The notes below the pieces were generated by a model. The model did no database searches and was not told where the DNA came from. It was given only the letters and a program-made list of their open reading frames with translations. This document shows, piece after piece, positions 10,579 to 34,756 of a DNA stretch of 64,000 nucleotides. Position 1 is the stretch's first letter. Every line of letters starts with the position of its first letter. The position numbers were made by a program, and so were the translations under genes. Source of the stretch: Pseudomonadota bacterium (GTDB lineage Bacteria; Pseudomonadota; Gammaproteobacteria; Xanthomonadales; SZUA-36); assembly GCA_015222805.1 (NCBI GenBank), contig JADFVZ010000020.1, positions 24,301 through 88,300 of the forward strand. The letters run 5' to 3'.

Positions 10579-11697
10579 TCAATTGCCAACAACCTGCTTA
10601 TAGGCCCAGGTCATCCAGGGCATCAATGCTTCAAGGTCGGAAGCTTCTACAGTGGCACCGCCCCAAATACGAATACCGGCTGGTGCATCCCGATAGGCTC
10701 CTATGTCATAAGCCACTCCTTCTTCAGCCAGTAAACTGACAATGGCTTTTACCTGCTCAGGCTCGGCTTTGAGGGTTAGGCATATACTGGTATTGGAATT
10801 AGTTGCCGGATCCCGGGCGAGGAAATCAATCCAGTTATTCTCAGCTACAAACTTTGCTATGACTGCAAGGTTATCTTCAGACTTTTTAATTGTACCCGCA
10901 ACCCCGCCCAGGCTTTTTACCCAGGCCAATGCATCAAGGTAATCGGCCACACACAGCATGGAAGGAGTATTGATGGTTGAGCCCTTGAATATACCTTCAT
11001 TGAGCTTGCCGTTTTTGGTCATGCGGAAAATCTTGGGTAGTGGCCATACAGGGGTATAGGATTCCAGGCGGGCAACGGCCCGGGGACTTAATATCAACAT
11101 TCCGTGAGCGCCTTCACCACCAAGGACTTTTTGCCAGCTGAAGGTAATGACATCCAGTTTTTCCCAGGGTATATCCATGGCAAATACTGCGGATGTGGCA
11201 TCACAAATTGTCAGGCCCTCACGATCATCCGCAATCCAGTCCCCGTCGGGTACTTTTACCCCGGCTGTTGTGCCGTTCCAGGTAAAAACCACGTCCCGAT
11301 TAAAGTCCACCTCTGAAAAATCAGGCAGTTTGCCGTAATCGGCTTCAAAGCAGCGGGTGTTTTTCAGTTTTAACTGTGTGGTGATGTCGGTAATCCAGCC
11401 TTTACCGAATGATTCCCATGCCAGCACATCAACGGCTCTTTCTCCGAGTAGTGACCACATTGCCATTTCAACTGCCCCGGTATCTGATGCCGGGACTACT
11501 CCGACCCGGTAAGCTTCCGGTAAACCCAGTAATTCGGCTGTTTCACTACAGACCTTAGCCAGCCTGTCCTTACCCAGCGCAGAACGGTGGGAACGGCCGA
11601 GGGTGTCTATTTTTAACTGCTTGAGTGAGTATCCAGGGCGTTTTGAACAGGGTCCTGAGGAAAAATTTGGGTTTTCGGGTCTAATCTGGGGTTTCAT
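10579..11697 (-). CDS. serC: Phosphoserine aminotransferase, alphaproteobacterial/Methanosarcina-type subfamily
   Basis: [70 protein letters not shown]. Confidence 0.9.
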
Positions 11698-11900
11698 CGC
11701 GGCTCTCTAAGATGTGTTTTTTTACTGTATTATTCGCCTGTTAAGTATGCCATTTAAGCGTAAGGGTTGATAGCCGTTAAGAATGAATATTTGAGGTATT
11801 TATTACTCTGGTTCAGTCATGTTTTAAGGTCGGTATATCAAGCTGATATTAAACTTATCCGTATAAGGACTGTCACACTATTTCAACCGGGAGAAACACC

Positions 11901-12584
11901 ATGGAATTACGTAAGCTTTCAATCATCCTGCTCGGCCTGGCTGTGCTGGGATTTGCCTCCTCTCCGGTATTGGCAAAGAAAAGCCAGCCGACGGTCAATG
12001 ATGACGGAATGCTGCTGGTTAAAGACACAAAAATGACTACGGTTTATTCTGATCCGGATGTGAACCTGGGCATTTATACCAGCATCATGTTGGTGAATGT
12101 TAGCGTCGCATTTAAAAAGAACTGGCAGCGCAACCAGAACAGTATCTCCCGCGGTGCTTCAAACAAAGTTAAAGACAGTGATATGGAGCGCATCAAAGAA
12201 AGCATTGCTCAGGACTTTATCGGTATTTTTGCAGCCGAACTGCGGGCCGGCGGTTATCAACTGGTTGATAAACCGGGTGAGTTTGTATTGGTTGTTCAAC
12301 CGGCGATTGTTGATCTCGATGTTATCGCGCCTGATGTCAGGGGCGGCAGCCGTTCGGGGACTTTTTCAGATTCTGCCGGTGAAATGACTTTAAAGCTTGA
12401 ATTGTTTGATTCACTTACGAACGATAAAATTGTCACTGTCAGGGACCGTAAAAGAGATTATCCAGGGATTGCCGAGTGGCGAACCAGAGGCAGTAACCGC
12501 ACGGATTCTATCAGGATGATGGATGCATGGGCCACGGCTTTCACGGAAGCATTGAATGAAGCGCGTGCATCGGTGCAAAAATAG
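11901..12584 (+). CDS. DUF3313-like secreted protein (paralog 1)
   Basis: Signal peptide; LVKDTKMTTVYSDPDVNLGIYTSIMLVNVSVAFKKNW; close paralog of the next gene. Confidence 0.7.
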   Translation: MELRKLSIILLGLAVLGFASSPVLAKKSQPTVNDDGMLLVKDTKMTTVYSDPDVNLGIYTSIMLVNVSVAFKKNWQRNQNSISRGASNKVKDSDMERIKESIAQDFIGIFAAELRAGGYQLVDKPGEFVLVVQPAIVDLDVIAPDVRGGSRSGTFSDSAGEMTLKLELFDSLTNDKIVTVRDRKRDYPGIAEWRTRGSNRTDSIRMMDAWATAFTEALNEARASVQK

Positions 12585-12715
12585 AATGCATGAGGATCGC
12601 TCTGAACAGAGCTTTCCTGCCAGATGTCTGTGATAACTTTTTTAAACAACATAAGTATACTGATAACTTTAGACGAGCAAAGGCTGTCAGGTGATGGCTG
12701 CCAGGAGAAAAGAAT

Positions 12716-13402
12716 ATGCGAACAAGTAGTAAAGTACTCATCCTCACTGCACTGATGACTGCTAGTCTGGTCGCGGGGCCATTGTGGGCAAAAAATGATA
12801 TGCCGGCTATTAATGCTGAAGGCATGGAGCTGGTTAAAGACACCAAATCGACTACGATTTACTCTGATCCCGGTGCAGATCTGGGTATCTACACTGCTGT
12901 TATGCTAAGTGATGCCAGTGTGTCTTTCAAAAAGAACTGGAAACGTGATTACAACAGGGACACCAGGGATCTTGCCGGTAAAGTAAAAGACAGTGATATG
13001 GATCGTATCAAAGAAGGTGTAGCAACAATATTCAAGCAAGCTTTTACCGAGCAACTGACGGCTGGTGGATACAAACTGGTGGATGAACCCGGTGAATTTG
13101 TCTTAAGAGTTAAGCCGGCTATTGTTGATCTGGACGTGTATGCCCCCGATATCAGGTCGGCTTCGCGCAGCCGCACTTATTCTGAATCAGTCGGTGAAAT
13201 GACCTTGAACCTTGAACTGTATGACTCTCTGACAAATGACAAAATTGTCAGTGTTCGCGACCACAAGCGGGATTTAGGGCATGGATATGCCCAGTGGAGG
13301 ACCAGTGGCAAGAATAAAGCGGATGCTCAACGGATGATGAACGCATGGGCAAAAGCATTCACGGAATCGCTGGATGAAGCAAAGGCGTCGGTAGGTAAAT
13401 AG
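12716..13402 (+). CDS. DUF3313-like secreted protein (paralog 2)
   Basis: Signal peptide; LVKDTKSTTIYSDPGADLGIYTAVMLSDASVSFKKNW; aligns with 11901..12584 along its length. Confidence 0.7.
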   Translation: MRTSSKVLILTALMTASLVAGPLWAKNDMPAINAEGMELVKDTKSTTIYSDPGADLGIYTAVMLSDASVSFKKNWKRDYNRDTRDLAGKVKDSDMDRIKEGVATIFKQAFTEQLTAGGYKLVDEPGEFVLRVKPAIVDLDVYAPDIRSASRSRTYSESVGEMTLNLELYDSLTNDKIVSVRDHKRDLGHGYAQWRTSGKNKADAQRMMNAWAKAFTESLDEAKASVGK

Positions 13403-13410
13403 GGATCAAA

Positions 13411-13450
13411 AAGGCCGGGCTGTAAAGCGAACAGCCTGGCCGGTTTTCTT
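13411..13450 (+). terminator. Rho-independent terminator
   Basis: GGCCGGGCTGT-loop-ACAGCCTGGCC hairpin followed by a T-rich tract. Confidence 0.75.
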
Positions 13451-13470
13451 TTTAGCTAAAAACTTTCAGC

Positions 13471-13768
13471 TTATTGGCTGTCAGGCAGGGTAGCCGTTGC
13501 TTTACTCAGGTCGCTGGAATCAGAACTTAAGGCTTGTTTAACCTTTTCCATATCAACCGAATCTGCTGCTTTTTCTTTGTCTACTGACTCATAGGCTTTT
13601 TTATAGTCAATACCTGTGCCGTCTACGGCACCTTTGAGCTGCTCAACATCGACAGACTCTTGTGCTTTGTCAGTATCGACAGCTTCAGCCAGTTTACCGA
13701 GATCAGCAGCGCCTGAGAGTGTTGGCAGGCTTAGCAGTAATGTGAGTAATACAGTTTTTATTTTTCAT
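13471..13768 (-). pseudogene. Small secreted protein gene with apparent +1 frameshift in an A-run after the start codon
   Basis: Reverse strand ATGAAAAATAAAAACTG...; removing one A gives MKIKTVLLTLLLSLPTLSGAADLGKLAEAVDTDKAQESVDVEQLKGAVDGTGIDYKKAYESVDKEKAADSVDMEKVKQALSSDSSDLSKATATLPDSQ*. The 298-bp length is 3n+1. Confidence 0.7.
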
Positions 13769-13838
13769 AAGAATAACTCCCGGTAGTTTGAATGTGGTCG
13801 GGGAGTATGCCAATAAAGCTGTAGTGCTGAGCTAGGGG

Positions 13839-14177
13839 CTAAGTTTTAGGTGTTCCAGATAACCACTCGATAGTATCACCCTCACTGCGTTCGATAGTGA
13901 TCATTTCAGGCTGTTCGCCTTTCATCCAGATGCTGCCGTTTTTACGGGTGACGCCGTCTTCGCTGTAGTCGAAACGAAACAGCCGCCGCAGGGTTAAACC
14001 ACCGCGTGGGTTGCGGGCGATTTTCATTCCAGCCAGGGCTACCGTTTGATCAAGCAGTTGCAGCTGGTATTGCTTGCATAAGCGGGCAACTGCAATACGC
14101 GCCCGATCGCGGGCACGCATGGTTGTCAGCCATGAAACTGAGATAGCAACCAGGATAATGATGAGCAATAATTCCAT
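13839..14177 (-). CDS. DUF3301-like small membrane-anchored protein
   Basis: N-terminal TM segment, then QLLDQTVALAGMKIARNPRGGLTLRRLFRFDYSEDGVTRKNGSIWMKG. Confidence 0.7.
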   Translation of the reverse strand: MELLLIIILVAISVSWLTTMRARDRARIAVARLCKQYQLQLLDQTVALAGMKIARNPRGGLTLRRLFRFDYSEDGVTRKNGSIWMKGEQPEMITIERSEGDTIEWLSGTPKT

Positions 14178-20709: not shown

Positions 20710-21156
20710 GTGAAATCAGTTGAAGAAATCCTTGATTATGCCATTGCTCGTGAACAACAAGCAGTTGATTTTTATACGAAACTGTCAAATATGGCACCCG
20801 GCATCCAGTTACAGCAGCTAATGCGTGATTATGCCGCCGAAGAACAGCGCCATAAAGATAAGCTGCTGGCAGTCAAAACGGACGGGGCGCTGGACAACGC
20901 GCATAAACAGCCTCTTGACCTGAAGATGGCTGATTACCTGGTTGATGTTGAAGAAACCCCTGAAATGACCTATCAGGATGCGCTAATTATTGCGATGAAA
21001 CGTGAACAGGTCGCTTTCCTGTTGTATACAGACCTCGCAGAAAAGGTTGAATCCCCCGAGCTGAAATCGCTGTTTGAAGCACTCGCCAGGGAAGAAGCCT
21101 CACACAAAAACTATTTCGAGTCCGAGTATGATGACAAAATCTACACAGACAATTAA
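20710..21156 (+). CDS. Ferritin-like/rubrerythrin-domain diiron protein
   Basis: GTG start; two E..ExxH helix pairs: REQQAVDFY/EEQRH and REQVAFLLY/EEASH. Confidence 0.85.
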   Translation: MKSVEEILDYAIAREQQAVDFYTKLSNMAPGIQLQQLMRDYAAEEQRHKDKLLAVKTDGALDNAHKQPLDLKMADYLVDVEETPEMTYQDALIIAMKREQVAFLLYTDLAEKVESPELKSLFEALAREEASHKNYFESEYDDKIYTDN

Positions 21157-21655
21157 ATCAGCAAAAGGCAGGGTGACGATAAGCCTTTTTGTCAGCCTGT
21201 TTGCTATCTGGTTGATGCTTAACTCCACACTCGCCTGGCAGGTTTGGGTGCTTGGGCTGGTACTGGCGATCGCCGGAGCTGTTGCGTTTAAGGATATTGC
21301 AACAGCTTATTCAGGTATTCGCTTTAGTCCAAAATCACTCATTTACTACGTTGCATACCTTGGCCTGTTCCTGAAAGAACTGGTTATCGCAAACCTGAAT
21401 GTTGCGTGGTTGGTGCTAAAGCCTGACCCGAATCTTCAGCCTGCCATTATTCAGGTGAAAACTGATTTAAAAACGGCTGTAGGCCGGCTGGCTTTGGCAA
21501 ACTCAATCACTTTGACCCCGGGAACTCTGGTGGTGGAAATCAAAGATGATTCCTTATTCATTCACTGTATCGACGTCAGCGAGGCCAACCCGGCCGATGA
21601 TGTTCGCGAAAGTGTGGCTCATTTTGAAAAATACCTGAAGGTGGTGTATGGCTGA
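21128..21655 (+). CDS. mnhE: Mrp/Mnh-type antiporter subunit E (MbhA-like)
   Basis: MnhE pattern IWLMLNSTL...LGLFLKELVIANLNVAWLVLKP...ALANSITLTPGTLVVEI; overlaps upstream gene by 29 bp. Confidence 0.88.
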   Translation: MMTKSTQTIKSAKGRVTISLFVSLFAIWLMLNSTLAWQVWVLGLVLAIAGAVAFKDIATAYSGIRFSPKSLIYYVAYLGLFLKELVIANLNVAWLVLKPDPNLQPAIIQVKTDLKTAVGRLALANSITLTPGTLVVEIKDDSLFIHCIDVSEANPADDVRESVAHFEKYLKVVYG

Positions 21656-21908
21656 TACCATCCTAAATCTAGCAATGTTTATCATCATGGTGGCTATTTC
21701 ACTGGGTATCTATCGACTGGTCAAAGGCCCGTCGGTCGTCGACCGGGTGATCGCAGTCGACTTGTTGACCCTGATTTCCATAGCCCTGATCGCGCTGATT
21801 GCGCATATCAGTTCACGTTTTATCTATATTGATGTGGCGCTGGTTTATGGACTGCTGAGTTTCCTCAGTGTGCTCGCAGTGGCACGCTATCTTGAGCGGG
21901 GATTATAA
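21648..21908 (+). CDS. mnhF: Mrp/Mnh-type antiporter subunit F (MbhB-like)
   Basis: GIYRLVKGPSVVDRVIAVDLL...YIDVALVYGLLSFLSVLAVARYLE. Confidence 0.9.
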   Translation: MADTILNLAMFIIMVAISLGIYRLVKGPSVVDRVIAVDLLTLISIALIALIAHISSRFIYIDVALVYGLLSFLSVLAVARYLERGL

Positions 21909-21910
21909 CC

Positions 21911-22168
21911 ATGTTGACATTTTTAACCCTGCTGCTTTGTATCGGTATTTTAATTAGTGCGCTACTGGCAACCTATCTAAGGAGTATGGTTGCTGCCATA
22001 GTCAGCGCAGGCCTTGCTGGTCTGTTTGCCTCAGTCACCTATGTGATTCTTGCAGCACCGGATGTGGCGATGACAGAAGCGGCTATCGGCAGTGGGATTA
22101 CCACGGTTGTGTTCCTCTTTGCCCTGAGCAAGACTCGTAGTAAACCCGGGAGTAAAGCCAATGACTGA
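21911..22168 (+). CDS. DUF4040/MbhD-like subunit (MrpA C-terminal module)
   Basis: SMVAAIVSAGLAGLFASVTYVILAAPDVAMTEAAIGSGITTVVFLFAL. Confidence 0.85.
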   Translation: MLTFLTLLLCIGILISALLATYLRSMVAAIVSAGLAGLFASVTYVILAAPDVAMTEAAIGSGITTVVFLFALSKTRSKPGSKAND

Positions 22169-22544
22169 ATTAATTGGCAGCCTGGTTATCCTGCTGGGCG
22201 CAATCTTTTTACTGCTGGCCAGTATCGGTGTTGTGCGCATGCCCGACAGTTATAACCGCATCCAGACCGGAACCAAGGCGACAACCCTGGGTTTGATCCT
22301 GGTATTAACCGGTATTGCAATTTACCATCCCGGCTGGACCTGGAAACTGGTCATACTTATTTACTTTGTGCTGATCAGCAACCCCGCATCATCGCATGCG
22401 TTGGCACGAGCGGCCCACCGCCTGGGTATTTTCAAAACCGATACTACTGTGATCGATCATTTGGAAGAATTTGAAACTGTGGCTGAAACAGAAATTGACA
22501 CTGATGCTGGCGACTCTTCCGGCACTGAGCAGGAGCAGTCATAA
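22161..22544 (+). CDS. mnhG: Mrp/Mnh-type antiporter subunit G (MbhC-like)
   Basis: LGAIFLLLASIGVVRMPDSYNRIQTGTKATTLG...FVLISNPASSHALARAAH. Confidence 0.9.
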   Translation: MTELIGSLVILLGAIFLLLASIGVVRMPDSYNRIQTGTKATTLGLILVLTGIAIYHPGWTWKLVILIYFVLISNPASSHALARAAHRLGIFKTDTTVIDHLEEFETVAETEIDTDAGDSSGTEQEQS

Positions 22545-23227
22545 TGTTAAAAAGACTATTTATGCTTATCGCCCTGGTCCTCATTGCTATCCTGTTTTTC
22601 GATGTTGCCAGTAACTTCACCGAACGCAGTGAATTAAGCGGTATTTCCCAATACTACGTAGAGCAGGGTGCAGAAGAACTGGGCGCTGCCAACCTGGTAA
22701 CTTCGGTTGTGGTTACTTACCGCGGACTGGATACCCTGGGTGAAGTTACGGTGCTATTCATCTCAGCGGCTGGCGCTTCACTATTATTGCGCCGGCGTCG
22801 TAACACCAACAAAAAGCTTGTTGTTGAAGAATCGTCAGAAATTGTGCAAACAACCCTCAGTATTATGTTTCCTATCATCATGCTGTTTGGTGTTTACATC
22901 TTTATTAATGGCCACCTGACCCCCGGTGGCGGTTTTCAGGGCGGTGCGGTTGTCGCTTCTGCCTTGCTATTCTTCATGCTGGCCCGGCCCAATGATTCCA
23001 TCAGCCATAAGTTATTAATGAAGATCGAATCCCTGTCCGGCTTCACCTATGTGGTGCTGGGGGTGCTGGGTGTCATCCTGGCCGGTGGTTTTCTCGATAA
23101 CCGGGTACTTGGACTGGGTGAATTCGGTTCACTCTTCAGTGCCGGCCTGATCCCGCTGATTTATATCCTGGTGGGCCTGAAAGTTGGTTCAGAACTCGGC
23201 AGCCTATTACAGAAGTTCAGGGAGTAG
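22544..23227 (+). CDS. MbhE-like domain fused to MrpB/MbhF
   Basis: N-terminus LVTSVVVTYRGLDTLGEVTVLFISAAGASLLL (MbhE-like), then MrpB IMFPIIMLFGVYIFINGHLTPGGGFQGGAVVASALL. Confidence 0.85.
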   Translation: MLKRLFMLIALVLIAILFFDVASNFTERSELSGISQYYVEQGAEELGAANLVTSVVVTYRGLDTLGEVTVLFISAAGASLLLRRRRNTNKKLVVEESSEIVQTTLSIMFPIIMLFGVYIFINGHLTPGGGFQGGAVVASALLFFMLARPNDSISHKLLMKIESLSGFTYVVLGVLGVILAGGFLDNRVLGLGEFGSLFSAGLIPLIYILVGLKVGSELGSLLQKFRE

Positions 23228-23236
23228 GGAATAACT

Positions 23237-23602
23237 ATGTTTGAATTTAATCTACCCCTGGCAAATATTGTCCTGGTAACCGGGTTTTTACTTATCCTGA
23301 GTGGCTTGTGGGCGATGTTTATCCATAAAAATATCATTCGCATGATTATTGGTTTCTCCTTAATGGATACCGGCATCCACATGATTATGGTTGCGCTGGG
23401 TTATATCACCGGCGGTACGGCCCCGATTTTTGATGATGCAGTCGATGGCATGCAAATGGTCGACCCGGTTCCCTCCGCGCTGGTACTGACGGCAATCGTG
23501 ATTGGATTAGGTGTGACTGCGGTCATGCTCTCCTATGCGGTCAAAATCCACCAGGCTAAAAATTCCCTCTCTATTGACGATTGTGCAGAACAGAAATGGT
23601 AA
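23237..23602 (+). CDS. mnhC: Mrp/Mnh-type antiporter subunit C (NuoK-like, MbhG-like)
   Basis: NIVLVTGFLLILSGLWAMFIHKNIIRMIIGFSLMDTGIHMIMVALGY...DPVPSALVLTAIVIGLGVTAVMLSYAVKI. Confidence 0.88.
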   Translation: MFEFNLPLANIVLVTGFLLILSGLWAMFIHKNIIRMIIGFSLMDTGIHMIMVALGYITGGTAPIFDDAVDGMQMVDPVPSALVLTAIVIGLGVTAVMLSYAVKIHQAKNSLSIDDCAEQKW

Positions 23603-26600
23603 CTGAACTCCTGAGTCCGCTGAATATCATTATTATTGCGCTGGGCGCAGGCTTTCTGCTGCCCCTGATCCATGCCAGGTCCCCGCGCTTTGCCGGGCAG
23701 GTAATGTTTGCAAGTTTATTGTATTTTGTGATTATCAGCGCCTATCACTTTTATACTTTGATCGGCGGCGCACCAGCCGTTGAAATTATTACTGCCGGCA
23801 TCCAGCCGCCATTTGCTATCAACCTGCGCTTTGGCCTGGCTGAAGCCTTTGTTTTACTAGCTGTCAACACGGCTGCCCTGTTCGGTGCCAGGTATATGTT
23901 TGATGAGCTTAGAGAACATGCTTCGGCAATGATCCTGTTTATTGTCTGGATCATGGGTATCAACGGCATGGTGATGACACGTGACCTGTTCAACCTGTTT
24001 ATTTTTGTTGAAATCACTGCGGTCAGCAGTTTCGTGCTGGTTGCCATGCGTGCTAATTCGATTGCGCTTTCAGCCGGCTTTAAATATGTCATTGCAGGTA
24101 CTATGGCTTCCGGATTCCTGTTGCTGGGTACCATGTTGTTGTACTACCAGACTGGTACCTTAAATATTGATGACCTGATCATTCATCAGGAAATGATTAC
24201 CGGCCCCTTCGGCACGGCGGCATTAATGCTGGTGCTGGGTGCCATCCTGGTTGAGCTCAAACCCTTCCCGGCCAATGGCTGGGGGCTGGATGTATACCAG
24301 GCAGCTCCTGCAGGTATTGCCGCGCTACTATCGGTTGGTGTTTCCGCCGCTTACCTGTTTGCACTGTATAAAATCCTGCCGTTGCTGACCTCATTTTTAC
24401 CTGTGATTGCAGCCACCGGTTTGCTGACTTTTGTGGCTTCAAACTTTATCGGTTTGCGCCAGTCAGACCCGCGGCGTCTACTTGGGTATTCATCCGTTGG
24501 CCAGCTTGGCTTAATGGTGACAGCATTAGCCCTGCTGACTAAATTCTCTTTAACAGAATATATTCCACTGGTTGTGGGCGGTCTGTTTATCAGTCATTTC
24601 CTTGCCAAAGCCGGCTTGTTCTGGCTGGCTGGAATCATCAAGGGTAGTGAACTTGGCGACTGGTCACAACTGCGCAGCAAACCTGTACTGATCATTGCCT
24701 TCCTGTTTTTGATCACCGCATTGGCCGGCCTGCCGCCATTCCCCACTTTCTGGGCGAAATGGCAGCTGGTAATGAGCCTGATGGAATACCAGCAACATGG
24801 CTGGGTATTCTTTATCCTGCTGGGATCGCTGCTGGAAGTGGTTTACCTGTTTCGTTGGTTTGGAAAAGCGGTTAGCAGTCAGTCTGATAAAGCGCTGGAT
24901 ATCTCGAGTAGTGGTAATCGGCAATGGCTGCCCGTGGTCTTGTTTGTTGGTTTGTTACTCGCTTGCGGGCAGGTAATGGCCAGCAGTTTTGACCTGCCGG
25001 TGATGGCTTTGCTGCCAGTTTACGCAGGTTTATTGCTGATGCTTATTGATGGCCTGGGTGAAAGGCTTAAACAGATTGCTTCCTTGCTGGTTATTATTGC
25101 CTATAGCGTCTATTTGATCCCTTCACTGGATGGTCTCAACTGGATTTTCGGCTTGATGCTGCTGCCGGGTTCCATCCTGATACTGATAGCATCTACTTAC
25201 CAGCAGGGCACTGCAAGACCCGGATTTTACCCCCTGTTTGTGATGCTGGTACTGTCATTGGGTACTTTGCTTGCGGCAGAAACCATGCTGGGCTTCTTCC
25301 TCGCCTGGGAGCTGATGACTGTCAGCTCATACCTGTTGGTGAGCCTGGGTAAAAAAGCCACCCGGCCATCCCTGGTTTACCTGGTCTTTTCCATCGCCGG
25401 CGCCTTTTTGATCCTGTTTGCTTTTGCGCTAATTTATGCACAAACCGGTTCCATGCAGCTTTCAGCTATTGGTCAGGCGGGTATTGTTTCCAATTGGCCG
25501 TTTATCCTGCTGCTTTCAGGCTTCTTTATCAAGATGGGTGGACTGGGCGTGCATGTCTGGCTGCCAGATGCTTATGCAGAATGTGATGATGACTTTACCG
25601 CGATGATGTCATCGGTAGTCAGTAAAGCCGGTGTGTTTGGACTGTTTGTCGTTGGTACACAGATGACCGCACAGTTGAACGACATGGATACCATCCTTAC
25701 CGTCGTTGGCTGGGTTGGGCTGATCATGGCACTGGCCGGTGCGATCATGGCGGCCATGAGTGAAGACATTAAACACCTGCTGGCTTATTCAAGTATTGGC
25801 CAGCTTGGTTATATAGTTACTACGTTCGCTATAGCCAACCATACCGGTTGGGTTGCAGCTATGTACCTGGCAGTTAACCACCTGTTGTATAAGGGCCTTA
25901 TATTCCTCGCTATTGCCGGTGTACTTTACCGGGTTAAAACCCGTTATATGTACCAGATGGGCGGTCTGATAAAAAATATGCCCATCAGTTTTATTTCAGT
26001 ATTGATTGGTATTATCACTATCTCCGGTGTACCGCCCTTACTGGGTTTTGGCGGCAAATGGCTGCTCTACAATGCTTTACTTGAGCGGGGCTGGTATCTG
26101 CAGGCTGGGCTGGCATTTTTCGCCAGTGCGGTGGCTTTCCTCTACCTGTTCAAACTGATCCATACCATTTTCCTGGGGCAGCGCAAGAGCGAACACGAGC
26201 ATGTCAAAGAAGCCCCTCTGGCCCTGTTGATTCCACAGATTACCTTTATGGTACTGATAATGGCCTTCTCGATGTTCCCGAACATCCTGATCCAGCCGCT
26301 TTCTGATGCTGTAGCTCCGTTCATGGCCTCAACCTTTACCTGGGAAGGCTACCTGTTGATCACTGAAAATGGTTACTGGAATGGCTTCCTGGTGATGAAT
26401 ATTGTAGGTGTCCTGTTTATGGCACCGGCAATCCTGCTGTGGCTGGTTTCGAAGAAGATGAAAGTACAGAAAGTGAAACAGTTCAATATTGTGTTCGCGG
26501 CGGAAAGGCCCTTTACCCCGGCGACTACACATTATGCGTATAACTTCTATGCGTTCTATGACAAAGCCATTGGCTTTTTAACCCGGCCGGATGCAACTCG

Positions 26601-26739
26601 CTTCTGGAATGGGGTCTCCGAATGGGGGCATACCGTCGGTGCTTCGCTGCGCAGGTTCTATACCGGTAACGGACAGACCTATGCCGGCTTAATTCTGTTT
26701 TATATCGGCGTAATGTACCTCGCCGTGAGGACACTGTAA
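23596..26739 (+). CDS. Double MrpD/NuoN-like proton-conducting subunit (H-H' fusion)
   Basis: About 1047 aa; two proton_antipo_M-like repeats: first half with VEITAVSSFVLVAMRANSIALSAGFKYVIAGTMAS/ELKPFPANGWGLDVYQAAPAG, second half with WELMTVSSYLLVSLG/KMGGLGVHVWLPDAYAECDDDFTAMMSSVVSKAGVFG. Confidence 0.88.
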   Translation: MVTELLSPLNIIIIALGAGFLLPLIHARSPRFAGQVMFASLLYFVIISAYHFYTLIGGAPAVEIITAGIQPPFAINLRFGLAEAFVLLAVNTAALFGARYMFDELREHASAMILFIVWIMGINGMVMTRDLFNLFIFVEITAVSSFVLVAMRANSIALSAGFKYVIAGTMASGFLLLGTMLLYYQTGTLNIDDLIIHQEMITGPFGTAALMLVLGAILVELKPFPANGWGLDVYQAAPAGIAALLSVGVSAAYLFALYKILPLLTSFLPVIAATGLLTFVASNFIGLRQSDPRRLLGYSSVGQLGLMVTALALLTKFSLTEYIPLVVGGLFISHFLAKAGLFWLAGIIKGSELGDWSQLRSKPVLIIAFLFLITALAGLPPFPTFWAKWQLVMSLMEYQQHGWVFFILLGSLLEVVYLFRWFGKAVSSQSDKALDISSSGNRQWLPVVLFVGLLLACGQVMASSFDLPVMALLPVYAGLLLMLIDGLGERLKQIASLLVIIAYSVYLIPSLDGLNWIFGLMLLPGSILILIASTYQQGTARPGFYPLFVMLVLSLGTLLAAETMLGFFLAWELMTVSSYLLVSLGKKATRPSLVYLVFSIAGAFLILFAFALIYAQTGSMQLSAIGQAGIVSNWPFILLLSGFFIKMGGLGVHVWLPDAYAECDDDFTAMMSSVVSKAGVFGLFVVGTQMTAQLNDMDTILTVVGWVGLIMALAGAIMAAMSEDIKHLLAYSSIGQLGYIVTTFAIANHTGWVAAMYLAVNHLLYKGLIFLAIAGVLYRVKTRYMYQMGGLIKNMPISFISVLIGIITISGVPPLLGFGGKWLLYNALLERGWYLQAGLAFFASAVAFLYLFKLIHTIFLGQRKSEHEHVKEAPLALLIPQITFMVLIMAFSMFPNILIQPLSDAVAPFMASTFTWEGYLLITENGYWNGFLVMNIVGVLFMAPAILLWLVSKKMKVQKVKQFNIVFAAERPFTPATTHYAYNFYAFYDKAIGFLTRPDATRFWNGVSEWGHTVGASLRRFYTGNGQTYAGLILFYIGVMYLAVRTL

Positions 26740-27659
26740 TGAACTGGGCTCTGAGTATTTTTTATTACATCGTCACAGTGTTGGTGGTGCTAGTTTACGG
26801 ATTGCTGCTTTACGCTTTTATCGCCAAAACCATGGCGCGGGTACAGGGTCGGATCGGCATTCCGATTTACCAGCCTTTCCTGGATATTATCCAGACTTAC
26901 GGCAGGCGTACAGCGGTTACCCATGGTTATATGTTTGACCTCGGTCCGGTCTTCCGCTTAACCGGTGGACTTGGCACATTGGCGTTTATACCGGTGATCT
27001 ACGGTAGTGAAATATTCGGCAATTTCCATTTTGCCGGTGACCTGTTGCTGGTCATGTACTTTATCTTTTTCGGCCAGCTGGGCATGGCGCTGGGTGCCGG
27101 TGAGAGTGGCCATCCCTATGCACCCATGGGTATTGCCCGTGGACTGGCGCAGATGACCGCTTTTGAAGTACCGTTTGCACTGGCAGTAATTGCGGTATTC
27201 ATGCAGTACGAAACCGCTTCGATTACGGAGATTGTTGCCGCCCAACAGGGCTCTATTTACAACTGGACCCTGTTTACCAACCCGTTTGCAGTGCTGGCAG
27301 CGATGTTTGCCTTCCTCGGCATGTCGATGTATCCGCCGTTTGACCTGGTGACTGCGCCCAACGAGATTCCGATTGGTCCGCCAACCGAATATCACAGCGC
27401 CTATCTGTCGTTACTGCAAACCAACCGTGCGATCTTTGCCGGTGCCAAACTGGTACTGTTTATGAACCTGTTTTTCGGTGGTGCCACGAACTTACCCATC
27501 ATGGTGCTGAAAACCTGGGCTATCTATATGATCCCGGTTTTAATCGGCGTGGCTTTCCCGCGCTTTAAGGTAGAAAATTCCATCCGCTTCTTTTTAGGCG
27601 TGCCCACACTGGTAGGCATTATCGCAGTACTTTATATGCAGTACTGGGGAACAGTATGA
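26739..27659 (+). CDS. NuoH/MbhM-like membrane subunit
   Basis: ARVQGRIGIPIYQPFLDIIQTYGRR, ESGHPYAPMGIARGLAQMTAFEVPFALAVIAV. Confidence 0.92.
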   Translation: MNWALSIFYYIVTVLVVLVYGLLLYAFIAKTMARVQGRIGIPIYQPFLDIIQTYGRRTAVTHGYMFDLGPVFRLTGGLGTLAFIPVIYGSEIFGNFHFAGDLLLVMYFIFFGQLGMALGAGESGHPYAPMGIARGLAQMTAFEVPFALAVIAVFMQYETASITEIVAAQQGSIYNWTLFTNPFAVLAAMFAFLGMSMYPPFDLVTAPNEIPIGPPTEYHSAYLSLLQTNRAIFAGAKLVLFMNLFFGGATNLPIMVLKTWAIYMIPVLIGVAFPRFKVENSIRFFLGVPTLVGIIAVLYMQYWGTV

Positions 27660-28309
27660 ACAAACAAGATAAAAATCCTGGTAACAACAGGGAAAACCTG
27701 ATCAAGCTCGAAAATGCGGGCCTGACTGCGGAAGAACAGCAACTGTTCTGTGATGCAGTACCGGTACCGTATGAGCCTTACTCACTCGAATTTGTTGAGC
27801 GTTTCCACAACTGGATCCGCGCCAACTCACTCTGGGTGCTGGCTTTCGGAACCGGTTGTGGCGCGATCGAACTCAATCCGTTAATGACCTCGCGTTTTGA
27901 TGCCAATCGATTTGGGGTGATGATGCGGCCGACACCCCGACAGGCATCGGTATTAATTGTTGCCGGTTATTCATCGGTTAAAACACTAAAACGCATCATC
28001 CGTAGTTATGAACAGATGCAGGGTCCGAAGTTCGTTATCGGCCTGGGTATATGCACCATCAATGGCGGCATGTACTACGACAGCTACAACACCATTAATT
28101 GCCTGGACCGCTATATTCCTGTTGATTTATATATCACCGGCTGTATGCCGCGGCCAGAAGCCCTGCTGGCGGGTTTTATGGAGCTCAAGCGCAAAATTAA
28201 AGCAGGCGAATGTGACGGTGCCAATCGCTATGTAAAAGATTTCGACTGGTATAAAGCCAATCAGAAGAAAGTCATTAAAAAATGGGATATGCCGGATTAC
28301 AATTGGTGA
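27656..28309 (+). CDS. NuoB/MbhJ-like [4Fe-4S] subunit
   Basis: FGTGCGAIELN, MMRPTPRQASVLIVAG, FVIGLGICTINGGMY, PVDLYITGCMPRPEALL. Confidence 0.9.
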   Translation: MNKQDKNPGNNRENLIKLENAGLTAEEQQLFCDAVPVPYEPYSLEFVERFHNWIRANSLWVLAFGTGCGAIELNPLMTSRFDANRFGVMMRPTPRQASVLIVAGYSSVKTLKRIIRSYEQMQGPKFVIGLGICTINGGMYYDSYNTINCLDRYIPVDLYITGCMPRPEALLAGFMELKRKIKAGECDGANRYVKDFDWYKANQKKVIKKWDMPDYNW

Positions 28310-28860: not shown

Positions 28861-30003
28861 ATGTTTGATTTAAAACGCTACTCTGAAGCCGAACTGGAAA
28901 GCGGTAAGTTTACCAAGCTCTGGCACGGCCCCCAGCACCCGGGTATTACCGGTAACATGTCGCTCGAACTGACACTCTCCGGAGATGATGTGGTGGAGTG
29001 CAAAACCCATGTGGGTTACCTCCATCGCGGCTTTGAAAAGCTGATGGAACGGCGTACCTATATCCAGAATTTTCCGGTGGTTTGCCGGATTGCTGTACCG
29101 GAACCCACATTCAATGAATATATGTATGCGGCGGCGGTAGAAGAGTTGGCTGGCATTGAAGTGCCTGAGCGTGCCGAATGGCTGCGCTGCCTGAATCTCG
29201 AGATGATGCGTCTTGCCAGCTTCCTGATGTGGCTGGGTGGCGCTTGCGGTTCCTTCGGTATGAGCACGGTCTATCAATGGACTGTTACCCATCGCGATTA
29301 CATGCTGGATCTGTTTGAAGAAATGACGGGCGCTCGAATTTACCATATGTACATCTCCCCCGGCGGTGTGCGTGCGCCATTACCTGACGGTTTTAGCGAA
29401 CGCGCGCTGAGCGTAATGAATGGCATTGAAAAACTGCTGTATGAAATTGAAAGGGTTGCCCTGAATAACCATATCTTCAAAATGCGTTCCCAGGATCTGG
29501 GTATTATTGACCCGGAAATGGTTGATCCTTATGGAATCGTTGGTCCGAATGCACGCGCTTGCGGATTTAAACGGGATGTCAGGAAAGATGCCCCCTACCT
29601 GGTTTACGACCAGCTGGATTTTGAAGTGATTACTGCCGATAAATCCGATGCCTATACCCGTACATTGGTACGCTACCAGGAAATGCATCAATGTATTTCT
29701 TTGATTCGCCAGATGCTTGAACAGATGCCAACCAAAGGTTCGTTCCATGCCGACCTGCCGAATGTACTGCACTGGAAAATTCCTGCCGGACAGACCTATG
29801 TTAAATCTGAATGTACCCGCGGCGAGTACGGCTACTTCCTGGTATCCGACGGCAGCGAGTACCTGCGCCGGGTCACTATTCGCGGCCCCAGTTACACCCA
29901 CGCCATTGCGGTGATGGAAAAGCTGGTTGTGGGCGTCAATATTGCTGATGTCGCTGGTTTGATGGTATCACTGCATACCTATCCGCCAGAGATTGAACGT
30001 TAG
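28861..30003 (+). CDS. NuoD/MbhL-like large subunit lacking [NiFe] ligands
   Basis: HGPQHPGITGNMSLELTLSGDDVVECKTHVGYLHRGFEKLMERRTY, GIEVPERAEWLRCLNLEMMRLASFLMWLG; no CxxC pair at either end. Confidence 0.92.
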   Translation: MFDLKRYSEAELESGKFTKLWHGPQHPGITGNMSLELTLSGDDVVECKTHVGYLHRGFEKLMERRTYIQNFPVVCRIAVPEPTFNEYMYAAAVEELAGIEVPERAEWLRCLNLEMMRLASFLMWLGGACGSFGMSTVYQWTVTHRDYMLDLFEEMTGARIYHMYISPGGVRAPLPDGFSERALSVMNGIEKLLYEIERVALNNHIFKMRSQDLGIIDPEMVDPYGIVGPNARACGFKRDVRKDAPYLVYDQLDFEVITADKSDAYTRTLVRYQEMHQCISLIRQMLEQMPTKGSFHADLPNVLHWKIPAGQTYVKSECTRGEYGYFLVSDGSEYLRRVTIRGPSYTHAIAVMEKLVVGVNIADVAGLMVSLHTYPPEIER

Positions 30004-30017
30004 TTTGGGATAAAGAA

Positions 30018-31790
30018 ATGAAACTGAAAGATCTAACATCTCCCTTTTATGTCTGGCAGCGGGCTTTCGAAAAGCCTTACACGCAGAGCAAGCCCACCCT
30101 GAATCGGGAAGGTGCACATGCCTATCGCGGATTCCATATCAATGACATAGAAAAATGTGTTGGCTGTGGTACCTGCGAAGAAATCTGCATGAACAACGCT
30201 ATTGATATGGTCGAAATTGCTGCTAAAGACAGTAAAAAAGGTGATAGTGGACTGGTTCCGCGTTTTGACTACGGACGTTGCTGCTGGTGTGCCTTGTGTG
30301 TGGATATTTGTACCACTGGCTCATTACGAATGAGTAATGAATATACCTGGGCCGCGGATGATCCGGACAGTTTCCGTTTTACCCCCGGAGTAGATGAGAC
30401 CAGCTGGCAGGATAGCGAACATGGCTATCGTCGCCACCCGGAGTACGACTTACTCAAGCTGGTGCGCCCTGAAATGGAAATGCTGTCACCTGATGAAGGT
30501 TTGAAATCCTTTGATGAAGTAGTCGCCGGTTATACTCATGAGCAGGCAGTAGTAGAAGCCGACCGCTGTATTGAATGCGAAATCTGTGTCGCCACCTGTC
30601 CTGCGAATATGGACATCCCCGGATATATACGTGCGGTACGTGAAGAGAATTTTGAAGAAGGCCTGCGTCTTCTTTATGACACCAATCCCTTCTCAGCTAC
30701 CTGTGGGCGTATCTGTACGCACCGTTGCGAAGACGACTGTACCATCAGTACCTTCGGTAAACCATTGGCAATTCGCTGGCTGAAACGTTATATCGTTGAT
30801 CAGGTTCCTGCTGAACGTTTTGCCGAAATATTGAATGATGAAATCACTGAAAACGGCCACCATGTTTCCATCGTGGGTGCAGGCCCTGGTGGTATGAGCG
30901 CGGCTTATTACCTGCGCAAGAAAGGCTATGGTGTTACTGTTTATGAGGCCGGCGCCAGTGGTGGTGGTATGTTGCGCTACGGCGTGCCGTCGTATCGCTT
31001 GCCGGACGACCAACTTGATAAAGATATCGATTACATCGTTTCCCTTGGGGTTGAGGTTAAGTACAACACCAAAATCGGTCATGATATTGAGTTCCAACAG
31101 TTGATGGATAAGAGTGATGCCATCTTTATCGCTACCGGCATGGACCAGCCATCCAGTATGCGCATCAAGGGTGAAGACCATCCGCGTGTTTTATCCGGGT
31201 TGACGGTATTGAATGATGTTGCCAGTCATAAAGACCCGGGCGTTGGTAAAAATGTTGCGGTTATCGGTGGTGGTAACGTTGCCATGGATGCGGCCCGCGT
31301 CTGTCGTCGCCTGGGTGCGGATGTAACCGTACTGTACCGTCGCCGCATCGTGGATATGCCAGCCGATAAGGACGAGATTAAAGAAGCCCTGGAAGAAAAC
31401 TGCAACTTCGTATTGCAGGCGATTCCGGTACTGATAGAAGACGCAGAATCCAGTGACCAGGTAACCATTCAGTGGGGTGAAGCCGAGATGATAGCCGAAG
31501 ACGGCAAGCGACCACGGCCGGTATTACAGGAAGATCGTATGCATACCGACACCTATGACTCAATCATTTCAGCTATCGGCCAGTCCGGTGACTTCAGTTT
31601 CTTGCCACAGGAAATCTCCGATCAACTGAAACAGCACTGGGGTAAATTCGAAGTCGATCAGCGCCAGCGTACAGCGGTTGGCAAGATATTTATTGGCGGT
31701 GATATTGCCAATGATGTTGCCGATGCGATCAGTGCAATTGCCGATGGCAAAAATGCGGCAATAGGTATTGATGCATTTGTGAGCTCTTGA
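30018..31790 (+). CDS. NuoI-like 2x[4Fe-4S] ferredoxin fused to GltD/NfnB-like FAD/NAD(P)H oxidoreductase
   Basis: CVGCGTCEEICMNNAI and CCWCALCVDICTTGSL; CIECEICVATCP plus CGRICTHRCEDDC; VSIVGAGPGGMSAAYYLRKKGYGVTVYEA; VAVIGGGNVAMDAARVCRRLGA; IFIGGDIAN. Confidence 0.93.
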   Translation: MKLKDLTSPFYVWQRAFEKPYTQSKPTLNREGAHAYRGFHINDIEKCVGCGTCEEICMNNAIDMVEIAAKDSKKGDSGLVPRFDYGRCCWCALCVDICTTGSLRMSNEYTWAADDPDSFRFTPGVDETSWQDSEHGYRRHPEYDLLKLVRPEMEMLSPDEGLKSFDEVVAGYTHEQAVVEADRCIECEICVATCPANMDIPGYIRAVREENFEEGLRLLYDTNPFSATCGRICTHRCEDDCTISTFGKPLAIRWLKRYIVDQVPAERFAEILNDEITENGHHVSIVGAGPGGMSAAYYLRKKGYGVTVYEAGASGGGMLRYGVPSYRLPDDQLDKDIDYIVSLGVEVKYNTKIGHDIEFQQLMDKSDAIFIATGMDQPSSMRIKGEDHPRVLSGLTVLNDVASHKDPGVGKNVAVIGGGNVAMDAARVCRRLGADVTVLYRRRIVDMPADKDEIKEALEENCNFVLQAIPVLIEDAESSDQVTIQWGEAEMIAEDGKRPRPVLQEDRMHTDTYDSIISAIGQSGDFSFLPQEISDQLKQHWGKFEVDQRQRTAVGKIFIGGDIANDVADAISAIADGKNAAIGIDAFVSS

Positions 31791-31862: not shown

Positions 31863-33635
31863 TTATTCACTAGCTCCCTGGAACGGATTCCAGTCTTTAT
31901 CTACTTCAATAATATTATTTTTAGCAGTATGAGATTCATATAACGCGATCATGCTTTCTAATTTCTCTGGGTTTTCTATTTCTAATGGGTGTGTTTCAGA
32001 TGGATCCGTTACTACATTATACAAGTGCCATTGGCCATCACCGAACATTCCAGTTCTTACTTTCATGGCTTTTAATTCCCCTTGCATAACATAACCATTT
32101 CCAAACAATTCAAATGCCCACCAGTCCTTTTCTGATCTTACGACTTCCGATGTTCCATCTAAAAATGGCTTCATGCTTATTCCGCTTGGAGGTACAATTT
32201 CCCTACCCTTGTATTCGGTCATAGGATGCTTAATATTTGCATATTCGAGAATAGTCATTGGGATATCTTTTGCATACGCAACAGCGTTAGATTTTTCACC
32301 TGAACGAGCGTATTTTTCATTAAATGCGCCAGGGGGAACCACCATCATTGGTACTCTAATCCCACCTTCACCAATAAACCATTTCCACCATTGCAGTCCA
32401 CCTGTTGCGGCATTTGCCCACGATGTGCCAATGACATTTTCTGAATTGGCTGTACCAATTGCCTCAAAAGAAGAATCAAATTGATTTTCAATCCATTTTG
32501 CCAGCTCTGGATTACCTGTTTTTGGATTGGTAGGCTCTAATCCTTCTGGTCCATTATCAGTTACATAGACAATCAATGTATTGTCTAGCTGACCAGATGC
32601 TTTAAGGTAATCTAAAATCTGACCTATTCTAGAATCTTGGTCTTCAATCATTGCAGCATAAGTCGCCATTATTTTTGCTTGTTTTTCTTTATCTTCTTGT
32701 GAGAGGCTTTCCCACTTTCTTGTTAGATTGTTAAATGGTGCTTCTGTTGCTTTGTGAGAGATTAACCCGTGTTCTTTGAGGCTCTCGTATCTAGCTTTCT
32801 TCAACCCTGCATACCCTAATTCCAGGTATTTAGGATAATATTTCATAATCAACTCTTCAGGAGCTTGAATAGGGAAATGCGCAGTTGTAAATGCCATATA
32901 CGCAAACCAGGGTTTATCTTTTTTAACCCCATCTTTTATAAACTCTAGCATTTGGTTTGTGTAGATTTCGCCAGAATATATTCCATCAGGCCTGTCGTAT
33001 GCTTCTCCGTTTAGTGTCCATTCTTCAACACGTTTTTTATTTAAGCCATCTGGATCGTGAAAATCGGGTGTCATGGCTAAATTATTCCAGTGATTTGAAC
33101 CTCCAGAATAAATACCAAACTCTTTGGTAAATCCAAATCCTAAAGGCCCTTTGCTTCCTGGTTTGTCACCGCCCAGGTGCCATTTTCCAACTTTGTAAAC
33201 TTCATAGCCTTCATCTTTCAATAATTCAGAAATAGTGACAGCATCATCAGTTAAGTAAGTTTCATATCCCTTCTTTCCCCTGGTTGGAGGATATACAGAA
33301 TAATCAAAAGCACCCAGGCCTACTTCGATACTATCATTTCCAGTAAAAAGCATTGACCTGGTAACAGAGCAAACGGGTGATACATGAAAGTTTGTAAAGC
33401 GGATGCCTGCATCAGCAAGTTTATTCATATTCGGAGTTTTAACTTCTGAGCCAAAAGCGCCAATGTCTCCAAAAGCAGTATCGTCACCAACCAGCAATAA
33501 AATATTTGGCTTCTTTGCTATTTCAGTTGAAGGTTGTTCCTGGTTGGGAGCTTGTGTGCTGCAAGCAGTTAAAAATATACTGATCACAGTAAAAATAAGG
33601 GTGGTAAAAAAATATGGTTTTCTCATGAGTTCCAT
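31863..33635 (-). CDS. Arylsulfatase-family (type I sulfatase-like) lipoprotein
   Basis: KPNILLLVGDDTAFGDIGAFGSEVKTPNMNKLADAGIRFTNFHVSPVCSVTRSMLFTGND; VYKVGKWHLGG; lipobox LTACS. Confidence 0.9.
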   Translation of the reverse strand: MELMRKPYFFTTLIFTVISIFLTACSTQAPNQEQPSTEIAKKPNILLLVGDDTAFGDIGAFGSEVKTPNMNKLADAGIRFTNFHVSPVCSVTRSMLFTGNDSIEVGLGAFDYSVYPPTRGKKGYETYLTDDAVTISELLKDEGYEVYKVGKWHLGGDKPGSKGPLGFGFTKEFGIYSGGSNHWNNLAMTPDFHDPDGLNKKRVEEWTLNGEAYDRPDGIYSGEIYTNQMLEFIKDGVKKDKPWFAYMAFTTAHFPIQAPEELIMKYYPKYLELGYAGLKKARYESLKEHGLISHKATEAPFNNLTRKWESLSQEDKEKQAKIMATYAAMIEDQDSRIGQILDYLKASGQLDNTLIVYVTDNGPEGLEPTNPKTGNPELAKWIENQFDSSFEAIGTANSENVIGTSWANAATGGLQWWKWFIGEGGIRVPMMVVPPGAFNEKYARSGEKSNAVAYAKDIPMTILEYANIKHPMTEYKGREIVPPSGISMKPFLDGTSEVVRSEKDWWAFELFGNGYVMQGELKAMKVRTGMFGDGQWHLYNVVTDPSETHPLEIENPEKLESMIALYESHTAKNNIIEVDKDWNPFQGASE

Positions 33636-33811: not shown

Positions 33812-34756
33812 ATGACTACATTAACTCAATTAGCTCATGCAATTGCACTATATGAATACGGTAATTTCCGGCGGGCTGCAGAATCACAGCATATCAGTCA
33901 GCCAGCCTTTTCTCGAAGTATTCAAAAACTTGAGATATTACTAGAAGTAAAGTTATTTAATCGCCAACGAGGTGGCAGCATAACGCCGACAATATATGGT
34001 GAGTCATTATTGATTCGTGCAAAAACCATCTTTGGGGAGACTGATGAGTTAAAACGTGAAATTCAACTTCTTAAAAGTGTTGATACTGGTAATTTGTCTA
34101 TTGCTATCGGACCACATGCTGCAGAAACATCAGCTAATAAAGCCTTAGCCGAGCTAGCCAAATTACATCCAAATGTACAATATAAGACTATCGTTACTAG
34201 CTGGCGTGAGGTGACTGATCTTGTGTTATCTGGTGAAGTTGATATTGGGATCGCTGAGATTTCTATGGCGAAAGAGATTGATGAGGTAGAGGTAGAGCTA
34301 ATTGCTCAACATGATATGGTCTACTTCTGTCGAAAAGGCCATCCATTGTCACAATGCAACAAATTTTTAAAATCAGAGCTTAATAACTATCCTCTGGTAT
34401 CACTTCGGCTACCACCTCGTGCAAAAGATCTGATTTTAGGCCAGCATTCAATAGAAGCAAAATCAGGAGATGTAATTCCATCCATTGAGATAGATAACAT
34501 TAGTTCGGCGAGAGCGATTGTATCAGGGTGTGATGCTATTAGTATTGCTTCTCCTTTGCAATTAGAACCATGGCTTGCTAGTGGAGAGATACAAATTTTA
34601 CCTTGCGGTGATACTCAGCTTAAGTTGGGATATGGTTTTATTTTCTTACGGGATCGCATGTTATCGCCATCGACAGAATTGTATATGCAAAAGGTTAGAA
34701 CCCTTGAAACAGATTTGATGCAAAAAAATAAATTATTACTAGATAGATTTACATAA
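33812..34756 (+). CDS. LysR-family transcriptional regulator
   Basis: LAHAIALYEYGNFRRAAESQHISQPAFSRSIQKLEILLEVKLFNRQRGGSITPT wHTH; divergent from the sulfatase. Confidence 0.92.
   Translation: MTTLTQLAHAIALYEYGNFRRAAESQHISQPAFSRSIQKLEILLEVKLFNRQRGGSITPTIYGESLLIRAKTIFGETDELKREIQLLKSVDTGNLSIAIGPHAAETSANKALAELAKLHPNVQYKTIVTSWREVTDLVLSGEVDIGIAEISMAKEIDEVEVELIAQHDMVYFCRKGHPLSQCNKFLKSELNNYPLVSLRLPPRAKDLILGQHSIEAKSGDVIPSIEIDNISSARAIVSGCDAISIASPLQLEPWLASGEIQILPCGDTQLKLGYGFIFLRDRMLSPSTELYMQKVRTLETDLMQKNKLLLDRFT

What the first reader, a model, noticed from the sequence alone, without database searches (positions are those of the whole stretch)
30018..31790. Fusion of a NuoI-type ferredoxin with a GltD/NfnB-type NAD(P)H flavoprotein
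Seen: one 590-aa ORF carries two N-terminal 4Cys clusters (CVGCGTCEEIC, CCWCALCVDIC), then the GltD cysteine region (CIECEICVATC, CGRICTHRC) and two dinucleotide-binding motifs (GAGPGG, GGGNVAMDAAR). Established: in MBS/Mbh the N subunit is a 2x[4Fe-4S] ferredoxin wire, and GltD/NfnB modules bind FAD and NAD(P)H. Inference: the electron-input enzyme is covalently attached to the peripheral arm, giving a one-polypeptide replacement for NuoEFG, possibly with ferredoxin/NAD(P)H branching.
Basis: partly seen in the sequence, partly recalled or inferred. Interest (0 to 1): 0.8.

Follow-up and report, generated by a model that had tools for sequence, protein, structure and literature searches.

The report
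NADPH-input subunit of a sulfur-linked pump
One gene fuses a ferredoxin-like electron wire to an NADPH-oxidising flavoprotein; it is the electron-input subunit of an MBS/MBX-type, complex-I-like ion pump that, in its bacterial class, turns up only in sulfur-oxidising genomes, which suggests that bacterial forms of this sulfur enzyme run on NAD(P)H rather than on ferredoxin, as had been assumed.

Summary
In detail: 30018-31790 encodes an intact 590-aa protein with two ferredoxin-type [4Fe-4S] motifs fused to a GltD/NfnB-type FAD/NAD(P)H module. The architecture is not new: it is the unnamed NCBIfam family PRK13984, also present in Thermotoga maritima. It has a single origin and occurs in at least 13 phylum-level groups. 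Wherever the neighbourhood is readable it follows nuoD of an Mrp+NuoHBCD operon; in a 369-genome class sample all 17 genomes with this nuoD type have it. The complex is MBS/MBX-like, not complex I: its closest solved relative is P. furiosus MBS, the quinone His and Tyr are absent, and exactly the three cysteines that hold the MBS catalytic cluster are kept. The host also has an ordinary complex I. The flavin module keeps the ancestral NADPH motif (YRR) and, in all fusions, the StnC-type lysine instead of the NfnB glutamate, so linear, non-bifurcating transfer is favoured. In the class, the fusion tracks soxB/dsrA (17/17 versus 146/352). Best reading: an NADPH-driven, possibly reversible, ion-pumping sulfane/polysulfide oxidoreductase. 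The electron-input role is well supported; substrate and direction are inferred.

The parts
30018..31790 (+). MbxN-GltD fusion (PRK13984-like), 590 aa: N-terminal 2x[4Fe-4S] ferredoxin wire, then GltD/NfnB module with 2x[4Fe-4S], FAD and NADPH sites
30018..30362 (+). NuoI/MbsN-like domain (residues 1-115; cluster cysteines 47-57 and 88-98)
   Evidence: 6u8y_N (MBS) 2.6e-18, best of the N-domain matches
30504..31787 (+). GltD/NfnB-like module (about residues 163-590; cysteines 184-194 and 229-241, K256, FAD motif 284-292, NADPH motif YRRR)
   Evidence: (5jca_L TM 0.87 by target length)
28861..30003 (+). NuoD/MbsL-like subunit; T30, V79, A78 and Y374 stand where complex I has His38 and Tyr87 and where MbsL has C85 and C385
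28282..28857 (+). NuoC/MbsK-like subunit
27656..28309 (+). NuoB/MbsJ-like subunit; C68, C133, C163 kept, G65 at the place of MbsJ C25
26739..27659 (+). NuoH/MbsM-like membrane anchor
   Evidence: 6u8y_M 144 bits, next best 63
23581..26739 (+). 1052-aa fusion of two MrpD/NuoN-type antiporter subunits (MbsH and MbsH' equivalents)
   Evidence: (two Proton_antipo_M stretches)
23237..23602 (+). MnhC/NuoK-like subunit
22544..23227 (+). MbhE + MnhB-like subunit
22161..22544 (+). MnhG-like subunit
21911..22168 (+). MbhD-like subunit
21648..21908 (+). MrpF-like subunit
21116..21655 (+). MnhE-like subunit (start codon uncertain)
20710..21156 (+). rubrerythrin/ferritin-like diiron protein, a frequent companion of the operon (usually just downstream of the fusion in relatives)

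Best explanation
The protein is the NAD(P)H-oxidising electron-input subunit of a bacterial MBS/MBX-type complex. NADPH reduces the FAD of the GltD module. Electrons then pass one at a time through its two [4Fe-4S] clusters, on to the two clusters of the fused MbsN-like wire, and to the proximal cluster in the NuoB-like subunit. That cluster is held by only three cysteines, so one iron is free to bind polysulfide or another sulfane sulfur and break an S-S bond. The redox step drives H+/Na+ movement through the Mrp-type membrane arm. The driving force (NADPH to polysulfide) is small, so the enzyme may be reversible in vivo. Shown here: architecture, operon, conserved residues, evolution, genomic link to sulfur oxidation. 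Inferred: substrate, direction, pumping, cofactor preference.
For: Operon Mrp-NuoH-B-C-D-fusion conserved wherever the neighbourhood is readable. Unbiased nuoD search: 17/17 have the fusion next door. Core subunits closest to P. furiosus MBS 6u8y: L 306.5 vs 227.7 bits for the best complex I, J 202.9 vs 136.4, M 143.6 vs 63.4. PMC7684303: the MBS catalytic cluster has three Cys ligands (C28, C93, C123); C25, L-C85, L-C385 are dispensable; H38/Y87 are absent. The equivalents of C28, C93 and C123 are invariant in this family; the window has lost exactly the dispensable ones; Tyr87 is Val in 60/60 readable rows and His38 is absent in all but one. NADPH motif YRR in the window, its sister grade and 10/10 outgroups checked, one later switch to an acidic NAD-type motif, also with the motif masked from the tree. 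Lys256 as in StnC. Sulfur link: dsrA or soxB in 17/17 fusion genomes vs 146/352 others; soxB in this host. mbxA of T. maritima rises with S0 or thiosulfate (PMC9431562).
Against: No biochemical data on any member. P. furiosus MBS takes ferredoxin; ferredoxin could still dock here. The NuoD equivalents of both leftover NiFe cysteines are lost here, a trait shared with complex I, and one relative (L049) has a complex-I-like tandem Cys in NuoB. The energy gap NADPH to polysulfide is modest for a multi-pump complex (own knowledge). The window's host lacks dsrA. The genomic association is not corrected for phylogeny, and several records are MAGs.
Confidence: 0.6

Rival explanations
1. Same complex, run backwards: in sulfur oxidisers the ion gradient drives electrons from sulfide or persulfide through the three-Cys cluster and the fused module to make NADPH or NADH (reverse electron transport for biosynthesis).
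For: Occurrence only in sox/dsr genomes within the class sample and in sulfur symbionts (Thiodiazotropha, Sedimenticola, Lamellibrachia); modest driving force makes reversal plausible. In Endoriftia the Mrp-Mbx complex groups with carbon-fixation (rTCA) genes and the authors list its direction as unknown (PMC11636981).
Against: Also present in fermenters and sulfur reducers (Thermotogota, Halanaerobium, Cloacimonadota) where the forward direction is more natural; T. maritima mbxA is induced by S0 or thiosulfate. Sulfur oxidisers can also respire stored sulfur under anoxia (Beggiatoa, PMC4914600).
Confidence: 0.25
2. An NADPH:quinone oxidoreductase, in effect a minimal complex I with a different input module.
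For: Host branch has lost both leftover NiFe-site cysteines in NuoD, as complex I has; L049 NuoB has a tandem Cys; hosts are quinone users.
Against: Tyr87 position is Val in 60/60 readable rows and His38 is missing in all but one, whereas the host's own complex I has both; subunits are nearer MBS than complex I; a canonical complex I is already present.
Confidence: 0.12
3. A ferredoxin:NAD(P)+ oxidoreductase, bifurcating or not, in which the fused module is the exit and ferredoxin the donor.
For: The P. furiosus Mbx was first thought to work so (cited in PMC2678158, and PMC6349859); GltD modules of Nfn exchange electrons with ferredoxin.
Against: No NfnA-like subunit in the operon; Lys instead of the NfnB Glu at the cluster ligand in 60/60; this route would by-pass the conserved three-Cys cluster and the membrane coupling loops; MBS was later shown to be a sulfane reductase (PMC7684303).
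Confidence: 0.08

Closest known systems
NCBIfam NF010590 / PRK13984 'putative oxidoreductase'
   Same: Same two-part architecture over the full length (residues 2-589 on model 7-607 of 611); a T. maritima protein exceeds the model's cut-off.
   Different: Score 670.7 is below the curated cut-off of 946; the family has no assigned function.
P. furiosus MBS (membrane-bound sulfane reductase, formerly MBX; PDB 6u8y)
   Same: Subunits J, L, M, N are the nearest solved relatives; three-Cys proximal cluster; no His38/Tyr87.
   Different: MbsN there is a separate ferredoxin-accepting protein; here it is fused to an NADPH flavoprotein, and the two large antiporter subunits are fused to each other.
Thermotoga maritima MBX
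   Same: Mrp-NuoHBCD complex linked to sulfur; the T. maritima genome holds a protein over the PRK13984 cut-off, and Thermotogota MAG loci show the full operon with the fusion (L079, L085).
   Different: It has been modelled as ferredoxin-driven (PMC9431562); the fusion argues for NADPH.
StnC of the Stn transhydrogenase (8oh5)
   Same: A GltD module fused to a complex-I-type iron-sulfur domain, carrying electrons one by one from NADPH; same Lys at the FAD-proximal cluster.
   Different: StnC carries a NuoG-like domain and feeds a soluble bifurcating StnAB module.
NfnB/NfnL (5jca, 4ylf)
   Same: Fold of the C-terminal module (TM 0.87 and 0.85 by target length, 35-36% identity).
   Different: NfnB has Glu at the cluster ligand and works with NfnA in bifurcation; here Lys and no NfnA.
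Respiratory complex I (NuoA-N)
   Same: Shared B, C, D, H, I-type subunits.
   Different: No NuoEFG; quinone residues and tandem Cys absent; the host has a separate canonical complex I.

Membership tests
NCBIfam NF010590 (PRK13984) | full-length two-part architecture | tested here: met
   2-589 aligned to 7-607 of 611, E 1.5e-201
NCBIfam NF010590 (PRK13984) | curated score cut-off (946 bits) | tested here: not met
   670.7 bits; none of 369 class genomes reaches it, T. maritima does
MBS/MBX complex | operon of Mrp-type subunits with NuoH, B, C, D and a 2x[4Fe-4S] N subunit | tested here: met
MBS/MBX complex | proximal-cluster ligands MbsJ C28, C93, C123 present without a usable fourth Cys | tested here: met
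   (sequence level only)
MBS/MBX complex | no quinone-binding His38/Tyr87 and incomplete NiFe cysteines in the L subunit | tested here: met
MBS/MBX complex | ferredoxin as electron donor | not testable with these tools
   the fused NADPH module suggests another donor
MBS/MBX complex | polysulfide/sulfane reductase activity | not testable with these tools
   only indirect: co-occurrence with soxB/dsrA
Respiratory complex I | NuoEFG input module in the same operon | tested here: not met
   every gene of the operon is accounted for; NuoF lies with the other complex I on C119
Respiratory complex I | His38 and Tyr87 in NuoD, tandem Cys in NuoB | tested here: not met
   the host's own complex I serves as positive control
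Nfn bifurcating transhydrogenase | NfnA partner subunit | tested here: not met
   no such gene in the operon
Nfn bifurcating transhydrogenase | Glu ligand at the FAD-proximal [4Fe-4S] cluster | tested here: not met
   K256 aligned to E117 of 4ylf_B; Lys in 60/60 fusions
StnC-type GltD module | Lys at the FAD-proximal cluster and Arg at the R239 position | tested here: met
   K256 and R327, invariant
StnC | fused NuoG-like domain | tested here: not met
   ferredoxin dicluster only

The most novel reading that the evidence does not exclude
A widespread bacterial NAD(P)H-sulfane respiratory complex: an ion pump that joins the NADPH (later also NADH) pool directly to zero-valent sulfur, used forwards by fermenters to respire sulfur and backwards, or during anoxia on stored sulfur, by sulfur oxidisers and their animal symbionts.
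Probability: 0.4. Interest if true: 0.8.

Novelty: new variant of a known kind. Interest (0 to 1): 0.62.

Why it matters
Bacterial MBX complexes have been drawn as ferredoxin-driven by analogy with Pyrococcus. A covalently attached NADPH module, present in every MBS-type locus found in the class sample, changes the predicted donor, the energy budget and the likely direction. It also names a candidate for a poorly explained physiology: which membrane enzyme links NAD(P)H to stored sulfur in sulfur oxidisers and symbionts. The window's branch is a natural test of the published MBS mechanism, since it has lost exactly the cysteines that mutagenesis showed to be dispensable and kept the three that hold the catalytic cluster.

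Tried and rejected
Electron bifurcation in the fusion: rejected as default because of Lys256 in 60/60 and no NfnA. A stand-in for the host's complex I: rejected, the host has one. 'Halves normally separate': tested with an unbiased nuoD search; the single apparent exception (G357) also has the fusion, missed because of an insert that split the profile match. Flanking genes as sulfur markers: led nowhere, only CBS-domain, dihydroorotate-dehydrogenase-like and housekeeping genes. Tunnelling distances and docking: no model coordinates available. Literature searches for the fusion by name found no description of it, but most subscription papers are not held. NQR was searched as an alternative NADH dehydrogenase; only a weak sub-threshold hit.

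Full report
Observation. The ORF at 30018-31790 (+) is intact, 590 aa, and starts 14 bases after the stop of the preceding nuoD-like gene. Pfam places ferredoxin dicluster models at 43-101, the GltD/DPD cluster domain at 163-264 and the pyridine nucleotide oxidoreductase fold at 282-577. AlphaFold2 on a 38-sequence alignment gives pLDDT 89.1 and pTM 0.84, with a stretch below 50 only at 22-27. The C-terminal module matches solved NfnB/NfnL structures best (5jca_L, TM 0.87 by target length). The N-terminal domain's best solved relative is subunit N of the P. furiosus MBS complex (6u8y_N, 2.6e-18).

Known architecture. The whole length matches NCBIfam NF010590 (PRK13984, 'putative oxidoreductase') at 1.5e-201 but below its curated cut-off (670.7 against 946 bits). 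Among 14 control genomes only Thermotoga maritima exceeds that cut-off. So the fusion as such was already in a curated, unnamed family; this protein is a divergent relative.

Setting. The fusion ends a tight operon in which most genes overlap: rubrerythrin-like, MnhE, MrpF, MbhD, MnhG, MnhB/MbhE, MnhC, a 1052-aa fusion of two antiporter subunits, NuoH, NuoB, NuoC, NuoD, fusion. The same order is found in the 15 class loci whose contigs reach past the fusion and in the full-length fusion loci from the genome collection wherever enough flank is held, covering at least 13 phylum-level groups. To remove the bias of searching by the fusion, I searched 369 class genomes with the nuoD protein. Seventeen have an MBS-type nuoD; 16 are the genomes already known to carry the fusion, and the seventeenth (G357) has a 632-aa fusion and a ferritin-like gene directly downstream. 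In this sample the two halves are never separate.

What complex it is. NuoD-, NuoB- and NuoH-like subunits are all nearest to P. furiosus MBS: 306.5, 202.9 and 143.6 bits, against 227.7, 136.4 and 49.7 for the best complex I or NDH chains; for the NuoH-like subunit the second-best chain overall is MBH at 63.4. The published MBS structure (PMC7684303) reports a proximal [4Fe-4S] cluster held by only three cysteines (MbsJ C28, C93, C123), which is proposed to break S-S bonds. [quoted passage not shown] In the family studied here the equivalents of C28, C93 and C123 are invariant (56/56, 57/57 and 56/56 readable rows); the C25 equivalent is Gly in 26 rows including the window; C85 and C385 are lost in the window (A78, Y374). 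The Tyr87 position is Val in 60/60 readable rows, and the His38 position is His in one row only. The host's own complex I, on another contig with NuoB-F, has the tandem Cys, the His and the Tyr, which is a positive control within the same genome.

Flavin module. In NfnB the FAD-proximal cluster has a Glu ligand and the flavin bifurcates; in StnC, a GltD module fused to a NuoG-like domain, the ligand position is Lys170 and the flavin does not bifurcate (PMC10482914). Window K256 aligns to StnC K170 and to the NfnB Glu. It is Lys in 60/60 fusions, against 20 Glu and 9 Lys in 29 stand-alone relatives. With no NfnA-like gene in the operon, linear one-electron transfer from NADPH into the cluster chain is the better reading. 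The Lys alone is not proof, since a minority of stand-alone GltD proteins share it.

Cofactor. The window and 14 relatives carry the canonical YRR motif after the second Rossmann strand; so do all ten outgroup proteins checked. Forty-five fusions carry a short insert and an acidic (LE) motif instead. The tree gives one origin of the fusion (98 SH-aLRT; 97 masked) and a single switch to the acidic motif (100; 99 when the motif region is masked). By the general rule for Rossmann folds (own knowledge) YRR suggests NADPH and the acidic motif NADH. The window is thus predicted to use NADPH.

Sulfur link. In the same 369 genomes, dsrA is found in 16 of 17 fusion genomes against 100 of 352 others, soxB in 16 of 17 against 135 of 352, and one or the other in 17 of 17 against 146 of 352 (Fisher 5e-8, 4e-6, 6e-7). 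The 17 genomes span 16 families, but the test is not phylogeny-corrected. The window's genome has soxB and no dsrA; it is 86% complete. Outside the class, carriers include Thermotogota, Halanaerobium, Cloacimonadota and Spirochaetota; within it, sulfur symbionts of clams and tubeworms. In T. maritima mbxA is induced by sulfur and thiosulfate, and the authors assumed a ferredoxin donor (PMC9431562). In the Riftia symbiont an Mrp-Mbx complex is listed as of unknown direction (PMC11636981). I did not verify which fusion type that symbiont carries.

Mechanism and its limits. The most likely path is NADPH, FAD, two [4Fe-4S] clusters of the GltD module, two of the MbsN-like domain, the three-Cys cluster in NuoB, sulfane sulfur, with ion translocation through the Mrp-type arm. 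Shown: the parts, their order, their conservation and the genomic association. Inferred: the sulfur substrate, the cofactor preference, the pumping and above all the direction. The driving force is small enough (own knowledge of redox potentials) that reverse operation in sulfur oxidisers is a real alternative.

Novelty. I found no paper in the held library that describes the fusion or an NAD(P)H-driven MBX. Subscription reviews on MBX are not held, so prior mention cannot be excluded. I rate it a new variant of a known kind.

Noticed in passing
window 23581-26739: Two MrpD/NuoN-type antiporter subunits are fused into one 1052-aa protein; the relatives nearest the window share this, while most gammaproteobacterial carriers have two genes.
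   Followed up: partly
window 20710-21156; downstream of the fusion in many loci (e.g. L034, L049, L066, L073, L086, L146): A rubrerythrin/ferritin-like diiron protein travels with the operon, upstream in the window and mostly immediately downstream elsewhere; role unknown, perhaps oxygen or peroxide protection.
   Followed up: partly
L049 (NuoB at 11347-11979): A close relative has a complex-I-like tandem Cys (GTGCC) in NuoB, unlike all other members.
   Followed up: no
L055 and L063: One Fermentibacteraceae MAG carries both an acidic-motif and a YRR-motif version of the complex.
   Followed up: no
L079 and L085, around 12660-14090: In Thermotogota loci a second, stand-alone GltD/NfnB-like gene lies just downstream of the fusion operon.
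   Followed up: no
L056 and L058: Nearly identical fusions in a 'Sulfurovum' and a 'Saprospiraceae' MAG suggest mis-binning of one of them.
   Followed up: no
L146 743-2641: The fusion of G357 has an insert before the FAD motif that splits the profile match.
   Followed up: partly
G000:C104:6310-7062, upstream of the window: A 570-aa reading frame matches the complex I 51-kDa family and weakly NQRA, possibly RnfC-like, on the same contig.
   Followed up: no
L060-L062, downstream of the fusion: CBS-domain or dihydroorotate-dehydrogenase-like genes follow the operon in some Bacteroidota/Chlorobiota loci.
   Followed up: no
window 31863-33635 (-) and 33812-34756 (+): A sulfatase-like gene (own reading of the sequence) and a LysR-type regulator lie next to the operon.
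   Followed up: no
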